Positions 3,706-6,163 of a DNA stretch of 64,000 nucleotides are shown here, piece by piece. Location of the stretch: positions 2,563,501 to 2,627,500 of the forward strand of contig NZ_CP014213.1 in the NCBI RefSeq assembly GCF_003268005.1, given 5' to 3'. Both the position numbers and the translations under genes were made by a program. Within the stretch, counting starts at the first letter, position 1. Every line of letters begins with the position of its first letter. The stretch is from Methanosphaera sp. BMS. GTDB lineage: Archaea > Methanobacteriota > Methanobacteria > Methanobacteriales > Methanobacteriaceae. The notes below the pieces were generated by a model. It did no database searches and was not told the DNA's origin. It saw only the letters and a program-made list of their open reading frames with translations.

Positions 3706-4140
3706 ATGGGAATAGGAAATACCCTGCGGGGAGACGACGCAACAGGACCAAAGATAATAGACATAATCTATGAAAAATTAGTAAACTCCGATGTTGATTC
3801 AGACAATATCTATCTGTTAAATGCGGCAACAGCACCGGAAAATCATACAATAGAAATAAGAGAAATAAATCCCTCACACCTAATCATAATAGATGCGGTG
3901 GAATTTTCTGATAAGCCGGGATCATTTATCATAGTTGATAAAAAACAGATAGATACATTCAACTTCTCAACACATACCATGCCAATATCCTTCCTGATAA
4001 ACTACCTTGAAGACAGTGTGGGATGTAAGATTTTAACACTGGGAATACAGCCGAAGGATATGACACTCGTGGATACAATATCGGATGAAGTAAACAGCAG
4101 TATTGAAGAATTGGCAGAAACAATAATCAAAAATATATGA
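3706..4140 (+). CDS. hycI: HycI-type hydrogenase maturation protease
   Basis: The 144 residues start directly with the family motif GIGNTLRGDD. They contain the IDAVEF and STHTMP segments that supply the Asp and His nickel-sensing ligands of HybD/HycI endopeptidases. The expected job is cleaving the C-terminal tail of a [NiFe]-hydrogenase large subunit after nickel insertion. The N-terminal beta strand expected before GIGN (here KLLIM) is encoded upstream of the only ATG, in an open frame reaching back to a TAA at 3637 that holds no ATG, GTG or TTG. The true start is therefore uncertain. It overlaps the next gene region by ATGA. Confidence 0.82.
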   Translation: MGIGNTLRGDDATGPKIIDIIYEKLVNSDVDSDNIYLLNAATAPENHTIEIREINPSHLIIIDAVEFSDKPGSFIIVDKKQIDTFNFSTHTMPISFLINYLEDSVGCKILTLGIQPKDMTLVDTISDEVNSSIEELAETIIKNI

Positions 4141-4151
4141 GGTGCATTCAA

Positions 4152-5306
4152 TTGAAAATATTATTTATAGGATCACGATTATTTGATGACATATCTTGGT
4201 ATACAAAAGAAAAAGGAATAACAAGTATCATCACTGAATCAAATGAACACGCTCCCAACATTGACTTGGCAGACAAACATTACATAGTAGAACGGGGAAT
4301 GGATAAACCCGGGGAAATTGCTTTAAAAGAAGATGTAGATGCTGTAATCCCACTTATAGGGATAGATAAGCCATTGGTTGATGTAGGTTTGTTAAAGGAT
4401 AAGTTGGAATCAGAAAATGGAATACCGGTTGTTGCCGCAGGTTACGATTGTGCCAAGCTGGCAGCGGACAAATATCAAACAAAAGAATTGCTCCTGGAAA
4501 ACGATATTAAAACACCCCTCTTTAGAAAAGTAGATGAAAAATACAATACTGATGAAATCAAAAAAGAACTACCTATAGTACTTAAAACACCCGAAGGACA
4601 AGGTGGATCAGGAGTAAAAATAGCACTAAATGATGATGATGTGGAAGAGTTCATCAAAGACAAGGATAATGTTTTTACCGAAGAATATGTTGAAGGATTT
4701 GAAGCATCAATTGAAGTTCTAAGATGGAATAACCAGGAAATTTCACTGGCACCAATCTACAAGGGAATAACTACAACCGAAGGAACACATCCTCTTGCCA
4801 AGATAAAACAGGGTCCCTTGGATATTGGGGGATTGGATAACAACTCACATAACAAAGCCTTAAGAAGCCTTGCCGAAAAACTGGCCCAACTTGTAAATGT
4901 AGAGGGTACAATGGACATAGACATACTTCATGATACGACAAAAAGTGAAGATTATATAATAGAACTAAATACAAGACCGAGCGGGACCCGATACATGACT
5001 GCCGCTACAACCGATGTATATCCACTATGTCAACTGGTAGACATGGCCTGTGGTAAATGGACAGCCAAAAACGTTGAAGGAAAGATGAATAACTATTACA
5101 GTGCCGAACTGCCTGTAGGAGATTTTCCACAGGATAAGAAAATACCGGAAAACAAGGTATTCGATGGAGACGTATCATACGTGGTACATGGGCCGGAACA
5201 CTATCAAAGACTAACGCTCAGGGCACCTACAAGGGACTTGCTAAATAAATTAATCTATGAATTAGTACCAGGATATGCAAAGGAAAATGATATTCAATTT
5301 CAATGA
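4152..5306 (+). CDS. ATP-grasp superfamily protein, carbamoyl-phosphate-synthase-like
   Basis: About 384 residues. An N-terminal preATP-grasp Rossmann-like domain begins LKILFIGSR. It is followed by an ATP-grasp core with the glycine-rich loop PEGQGGSGVK and the Mg-binding ExN motif in IIELNTRPSG. The family ligates a carboxylate to an amine or thiol through an acyl phosphate; the substrate cannot be told. I chose the TTG at 4152, which sits 7 nt after GAGGTG; the ATG at 4137 overlaps the upstream stop and lacks its own ribosome site. A group II intron starts 32 nt after its stop codon. Confidence 0.72.
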   Translation: MKILFIGSRLFDDISWYTKEKGITSIITESNEHAPNIDLADKHYIVERGMDKPGEIALKEDVDAVIPLIGIDKPLVDVGLLKDKLESENGIPVVAAGYDCAKLAADKYQTKELLLENDIKTPLFRKVDEKYNTDEIKKELPIVLKTPEGQGGSGVKIALNDDDVEEFIKDKDNVFTEEYVEGFEASIEVLRWNNQEISLAPIYKGITTTEGTHPLAKIKQGPLDIGGLDNNSHNKALRSLAEKLAQLVNVEGTMDIDILHDTTKSEDYIIELNTRPSGTRYMTAATTDVYPLCQLVDMACGKWTAKNVEGKMNNYYSAELPVGDFPQDKKIPENKVFDGDVSYVVHGPEHYQRLTLRAPTRDLLNKLIYELVPGYAKENDIQFQ

Positions 5307-5337
5307 ATATTAATCAATTGCATTATCATTACTTTTT
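5284..5337 (+). terminator. Possible hairpin plus T-tract serving as terminator and intron target
   Basis: AATGATA (from about 5286) and TATCATT (ending 5330) can pair across a long loop spanning the ATP-grasp stop codon. They are followed by CTTTTT at 5332-5337. The T-tract is also IBS1 of the group II intron. The hairpin is weak because of its long loop. Confidence 0.3.
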
Positions 5338-6163
5338 GTGTGACAGGCACTTGTCTTTAATTTGTTCTCACCTTAAACTATGCTTTAGGCGTGTTAGTAT
5401 TATATTCGTTTAGGGTGTATTTAACATGGTTATATGGGTTATTCTCCCTTGAACTGCACTACTGGTAACAATGGGTGGATTACATTATAGGTAAAGCCTA
5501 ATATTACTTCTAGCATCTATGAAGTAGTGGGTGAGAGAAAGACTAAGATCTCTAATAATAAATGAACTGATATAAGCATCGTAATAATGAGCCAGTAATG
5601 TGGGATGATTAAAGGATGTACTGTGATTGCAGATAGGCAGACGAAGTGAAAAAGGACATCTATAGATTACAACCCATATATCCGTCGGTGTAATGGGAGA
5701 GCCGAAGCTATATCGTATCTAATAAAAGATAAACCTGGGAAGCCTGGCAAAGTCCAGTAATATGTTACTGGTAGGTTTTTGTGAGGAGTATCTAAGACCT
5801 TGTTAGGTAAAGGATGTTAAGAAAGCTAATGCCACATTGTCATTAAGACAGAGGATTTTAACAAAATTGAACTACTGTGGATATGCTGACTCTAACAGGC
5901 AAATAACATGTTCATAAAACGAAAAGTATTTCAGATATGTAATTGGAATATGATGAAAGACATAGAAAAACACACAAATATTTTATGCTGTTGTGCATCA
6001 TTATATAAAATGGTATATAATATACGTATTTGATATATAAAATCGGATATAACATGCCAGTATTTTACTTTGGATAACTAATTTACTTGAGCCGTATGTA
6101 TTGAAAGGTACGCGTACTGTTCTGAAGGGAGCAAGAGAGAGCAACCTCTCTAACTTATCTGAC
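5338..6163 (+). mobile_element. ORF-less group II intron
   Basis: The left end is GTGTGAC, matching the GUGYG 5' splice-site consensus. Near the right end, 6089-6122 folds as a 34-nt domain V: GAGC... pairs with ...GUUC, with a GAAA tetraloop, a 2-nt bulge and the AGC triad. A domain VI hairpin with candidate branch A near 6153 follows, then a 3' end in AC. Exon pairing is exact: IBS1 CTTTTT (5332-5337) with EBS1 AAAAAG (5649-5654), and IBS2 TCATTA (5326-5331) with EBS2 TAATGA (5585-5590). One C-U mismatch sits in the lower domain V stem. There is no reverse transcriptase reading frame, so any splicing or movement would need a maturase from elsewhere. It lies in the intergenic region after the ATP-grasp gene. 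Confidence 0.85.
6089..6122 (+). ncRNA. Group II intron domain V (catalytic hairpin)
   Basis: A 34-nt hairpin. The lower stem runs from GAGC to GUUC and includes one G-U pair and one C-U mismatch at its fifth position. A CG bulge at positions 25-26 separates it from an upper stem capped by GAAA. This is the most conserved part of group II introns and the main basis for the call. Confidence 0.88.

What the first reader, a model, noticed from the sequence alone, without database searches (positions are those of the whole stretch)
5326..6163. ORF-less group II intron with perfect EBS1/EBS2 pairing to its site
Seen in sequence: GTGTG 5' end, 34-nt domain V with GAAA tetraloop and 2-nt bulge, domain VI, AC 3' end. 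IBS1 CTTTTT pairs 6/6 with AAAAAG at intron nt 312-317. IBS2 TCATTA lies immediately upstream and pairs 6/6 with TAATGA at intron nt 248-253. Two independent 6-bp matches in the canonical order are unlikely by chance. Yet there is no reverse transcriptase frame, and domain V has one C-U mismatch. Group II introns are known in Archaea mainly from Methanosarcinales; an ORF-less copy in a Methanobacteriales-like genome would be notable. It may depend on a maturase encoded elsewhere or be decaying. It sits just after a gene on a T-tract, a site that would do no harm.
Basis: partly seen in the sequence, partly recalled or inferred. Interest (0 to 1): 0.85.

Follow-up and report, generated by a model that had tools for sequence, protein, structure and literature searches.

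The report
Decaying ORF-less archaeal group II intron
This is a genuine group II intron (a self-splicing mobile RNA element) in a methanogen of the genus Methanosphaera that lost its own protein gene but shares a genome with four protein-coding relatives; it is a new example of a known kind and shows signs of decay.

Summary
Window 5338-6163 (826 nt) is an ORF-less group II intron: Rfam RF00029 at 6087-6163 (45.3 bits, above cut-off), 5' and 3' ends shared with homologues, and about 80% identity over DI-DIII to three copies in the same genome that carry an intact reverse transcriptase/maturase frame. EBS1/IBS1 and EBS2/IBS2 pair 6/6 as stated. Across 13 copies the homologous EBS2 loop matches each copy's own site (0 of 20,000 permutations as good), so the pairing is real. 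Nineteen genus relatives lack the intron at this gene.

It is not a rarity in its clade: 32 of 139 Methanobacteriaceae genomes have RF00029 hits, and ORF-less copies from a different deletion occur in sister species. The maturase is probably CL-type (closest solved relative TeI4h), with no endonuclease domain found.

The ribozyme looks worn: 12 of 77 base pairs invariant in relatives are broken, and domain V has a mismatch. I read it as inserted by retrohoming at a terminator-like T-tract 31 nt after an ATP-grasp gene, ORF lost, now decaying. Residual splicing with a maturase in trans is not excluded. New member of a known kind.

The parts
4137..5306 (+). upstream host gene, ATP-grasp protein of 389 aa; stop ends 31 nt before the intron
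   Evidence: Pfam ATP-grasp_3 50 bits; distance
5326..5331 (+). IBS2, TCATTA
   Evidence: 6/6 with EBS2; best of 13 introns for this site and best of 13 sites for this intron
5332..5337 (+). IBS1, CTTTTT, in a terminator-like T-tract
   Evidence: 6/6 with EBS1
5338..6163 (+). ORF-less group II intron, 826 nt
   Evidence: homology and shared ends with copies A-D; RF00029
5338..5910 (+). domains I-III
   Evidence: 80.6-81.1% identical to A, B, C; consensus fold with covariation
5585..5590 (+). EBS2, TAATGA (intron nt 248-253)
5649..5654 (+). EBS1, AAAAAG (intron nt 312-317), in the loop of a hairpin with one C-A mismatch in its stem
5911..6086 (+). domain IV remnant without ORF; similarity to the lost ORF region not significant
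6089..6122 (+). domain V, GAAA loop, 2-nt bulge, one C-U mismatch
6123..6163 (+). linker and domain VI with a bulged A at -7 (from the consensus pairing) and 3' end AC

Best explanation
A probably CL-type group II intron of the lineage that still has intact copies A, B and C in this genome inserted by EBS1/EBS2-guided reverse splicing into the T-tract just after an ATP-grasp gene (shown: homology, ends, EBS2 tracking, empty sites in relatives; inferred: the reaction). Its maturase gene was lost from domain IV (shown: absent; when it was lost is unknown). Because it lies between a stop codon and the next gene, splicing is not needed for a protein, and the ribozyme is now losing base pairs at a near-neutral rate (shown: broken pairs; inferred: inactivity or low activity).
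For: RF00029 hit. Three copies of the lineage and a fourth, diverged one with stop-free maturase frames in the genome. EBS2 loop tracks own site, 0 of 20,000 permutations. No intron hit beside the orthologous gene in 19 relatives. Decay: 21 of 138 consensus pairs broken in W against 0.8-3.0% in A, B, C, G010a, G010b, G010c and G009; 12 of 77 invariant pairs broken; substitution rate 0.122 at conserved columns, 0.090 at variable ones. Terminal branch 0.16 against about 0.01 for A, B, C. DV-DVI canonical fold -14.4 kcal/mol against -26.9 in A.
Against: W has more both-side compensated changes than random placement of its changes gives (11 against 2.7 relative to A), so its lineage was under selection for structure for part of its history. 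The catalytic AGC, GAAA loop, bulge, branch A, EBS1 and EBS2 are intact. The conserved/variable rate comparison is also near 1 for A, so it is a weak test on its own. D and G005a, themselves diverged or truncated, break 15% and 10% of pairs.
Confidence: 0.65

Rival explanations
1. W is still a working ORF-less intron, spliced and possibly mobilised in trans by the maturase of copies A, B or C, as in Thermosynechococcus elongatus.
For: Maturases of the same lineage in the genome; catalytic motifs kept; perfect EBS/IBS; excess of compensated changes; a sister species holds ORF-less copies sharing one deletion at two sites.
Against: Many broken core pairs, weakest domain V-VI of the copies compared apart from fragment F, no second copy of W.
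Confidence: 0.3
2. The motifs are a chance resemblance and there is no intron.
For: Whole-element folding energy is not unusual (z -0.70); single EBS matches are only 1-2% events.
Against: RF00029 above cut-off, 80% homology with shared ends to maturase-coding introns, EBS2 tracking.
Confidence: 0.01
3. The element has been kept for a host role, for example as part of the 3' end or terminator of the ATP-grasp gene.
For: Sense orientation 31 nt after the stop codon.
Against: Relatives have T-rich runs at this place without the intron; little sign of constraint in W.
Confidence: 0.04

Closest known systems
Thermosynechococcus elongatus TeI3 ORF-less introns with TeI4 driver maturases (PMC2882425)
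   Same: related maturases (best PDB match 6me0); ORF-less copies beside ORF-bearing ones; EBS sequences differ between copies and fit each site
   Different: TeI3 is 17 introns from one deletion, with mobility assays; W is a single copy with its own domain IV and looks decayed; the Methanosphaera proteins show no endonuclease domain in Pfam
ORF-less and RT-encoding group II introns of archaebacteria (Dai and Zimmerly 2003, as cited in PMC4424553)
   Same: archaeal ORF-less introns beside RT-encoding ones
   Different: its title reports homing into related intron ORFs; W sits on a T-tract after a gene. Known here only by its title
Group IIC introns at bacterial intrinsic terminators (described in PMC4424553)
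   Same: no endonuclease domain, insertion at transcription terminators
   Different: here the protein is nearest to TeI4h, EBS1 and EBS2 are both used, and the sites are T-tracts; whether a hairpin lies upstream was not tested

Membership tests
group II introns | domain V/VI covariance match | tested here: met
   RF00029 45.3 bits, cut-off 40
group II introns | GUGYG 5' end and AY 3' end | tested here: met
   GTGTG at 5338, AC at 6163
group II introns | DI-DIII fold supported by covariation in homologues | tested here: met
   38 of 145 consensus pairs have double changes; W itself breaks 21 of 138
group II introns | EBS1/IBS1 and EBS2/IBS2 pairing | tested here: met
   6/6 and 6/6; permutation test
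group II introns | splices and ligates exons | not testable with these tools
   needs RNA
ORF-less group II introns acted on in trans | no ORF, related maturase in the same genome | tested here: met
ORF-less group II introns acted on in trans | maturase acts on this RNA | not testable with these tools
   needs biochemistry
subclass IIB / CL lineage | CL-type maturase in sister copies; EBS3-IBS3 pairing | tested here: inconclusive
   RVT_N plus best match TeI4h maturase; no protein tree was built and EBS3 was not assigned
group IIC | class C maturase | tested here: inconclusive
   the protein scores 277 bits with the TeI4h maturase against 114 with GsI-IIC RT, which argues against class C; no protein tree was built

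The most novel reading that the evidence does not exclude
Methanosphaera carries a CL-type, endonuclease-less group II intron family whose homing sites are archaeal T-tract terminators just after genes, with a fast-changing EBS2 loop retargeting copies, and ORF-less members such as W still mobilised in trans: a convergent parallel of bacterial IIC terminator targeting.
Probability: 0.25. Interest if true: 0.6.

Novelty: new member of a known kind. Interest (0 to 1): 0.42.

Why it matters
A 2022 survey (PMC8919778) found archaeal group II introns concentrated in Halobacterota, with some in Thermoplasmatota and none in most other phyla; here RF00029 is found in 32 of 139 Methanobacteriaceae genomes. 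One genome shows intact, ORF-less, fragmentary and domain-V-less stages side by side, a good setting for asking how group II introns lose their proteins and decay.

Tried and rejected
Folding energy of the whole element was uninformative. Rfam gave no match to the part of W upstream of domain V up to E 1. A deletion shared between W and the ORF-less copies of sister species was rejected: those keep the start of the maturase gene with one common junction, W keeps no significant remnant. An early impression of IIA-type delta pairing was dropped in view of the maturase type. Trans-mobilisation of the domain-V-less mini-elements was considered and disfavoured because they lack EBS1 and EBS2. The 2008 ORF-less intron paper (PMC2525955) is not held. 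Literature searches for group II introns in Methanosphaera or Methanobrevibacter gave nothing on the subject.

Full report
The host. The window is 64 kb of a single-contig 2.87 Mb genome. The genus is Methanosphaera: the genome search places G017 in the same genus, and its contig C105 (52,949 bases) has the same length as SUTR01000014.1, titled Methanosphaera stadtmanae SIG25.

What is there. Window 5338-6163 is 826 nt. Its last 77 nt match RF00029 from end to end (45.3 bits). Its first 573 nt are 80.6-81.1% identical to the corresponding part of three copies, A, B and C, in the same genome, and 67% to a fourth, D. A, B and C are 2290-2292 nt and D is 2289 nt between the same terminal motifs. 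The maturase is 514 aa in A and 520 aa in D; the RT match lies in a stop-free frame in all four. The A and D proteins match RVT_N, RVT_1, GIIM and TIGR04416, and A has the TeI4h maturase as best solved match. Proteins of the kind occur in Methanosphaera, Methanobrevibacter and many Bacillota, which fits a bacterial origin; no tree of the protein was built.

The pairing. EBS1 and EBS2 are at intron nt 312-317 and 248-253. In 13 copies from this genome and relatives the homologous EBS2 loop pairs better with its own insertion site than with others (166 against 121, sd 8.5, 0 of 20,000 permutations). W ranks first both ways. Not every copy fits: A, C and G010b match their own sites poorly. The EBS1 test is weaker (2.5% of permutations as good) because most sites are T-runs. 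Copies A, B and C differ at 22 alignment columns, 6 of them in the EBS2 loop.

The site. The intron starts 31 nt after the stop of an ATP-grasp gene. Of 16 distinct sites of this lineage, at least 10 lie within 40 nt after the stop of a sense ORF of 100 aa or more; 18% of T5 runs outside ORFs in the window do (binomial 1e-4). The 16 and the 10 were counted by hand. The orthologous gene in 19 relatives has no intron hit within the flank held, and most show T-rich runs after the stop.

State of the ribozyme. With the structure taken from the other copies, W breaks 21 of 138 pairs; A, B, C, G010a, G010b, G010c and G009 break 0.8-3.0%, G018b and G005a 9.6%, D 15.3%. Of 77 pairs invariant in the others, W keeps 60 unchanged, changes 3 on one side and 2 on both while keeping them, and breaks 12. 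Domain V-VI in the canonical fold is worth -14.4 kcal/mol, against -26.9 in A and -23.5 in D. Against this, W has 11 pairs changed on both sides relative to A where random placement gives 2.7. I take this as a lineage once under selection, later relaxed. The W branch is 0.16 changes per column.

Distribution. RF00029 is found in 32 of 139 Methanobacteriaceae genomes, and DNA matches to W in 8 of 20 genus genomes including its own, one of them only 25 nt long. ORF-less copies G010a, G010b and G009 share one deletion junction that differs from W.

Limits. No RNA data were available. Sites and EBS regions were assigned by homology and by eye. Most relatives are draft genomes, and several copies end at contig edges.

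Noticed in passing
L025:941-3229 (own genome copy D); L109:1476-3761 (G010): These introns interrupt adhesin-like genes; removing the intron exactly leaves one frame open across the junction (370 codons with no stop to the end of the locus for D; 160 codons before and 413 after for the G010 copy). For D the unspliced frame stops at codon 66. This suggests splicing in vivo.
   Followed up: partly
L026:1066-1343 and L027:996-1273 (own genome): Two 278-nt elements, 9 differences apart, joining part of domain I to domain VI without domain V, EBS1 or EBS2, at unrelated T-tract sites; the same 3' flanks occur in G005, where the interiors look exchanged. Gene conversion is the likelier source; compare Euglena group III introns.
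   Followed up: partly
L022:1019-1381 and L023:1539-1644 (own genome): A 5' fragment and a 3' fragment of the same intron lineage.
   Followed up: partly
L091:1585-7165 (G010): Two ORF-less copies flank another intron of about 2.2 kb; the G009 copy has the 5' flank of one and the 3' flank of the other, as if recombined.
   Followed up: partly
L154 (Christensenella UBA3700 MAG): A maturase with a best segment 78% identical to the Methanosphaera one in a bacterial MAG; recent transfer or binning error.
   Followed up: no
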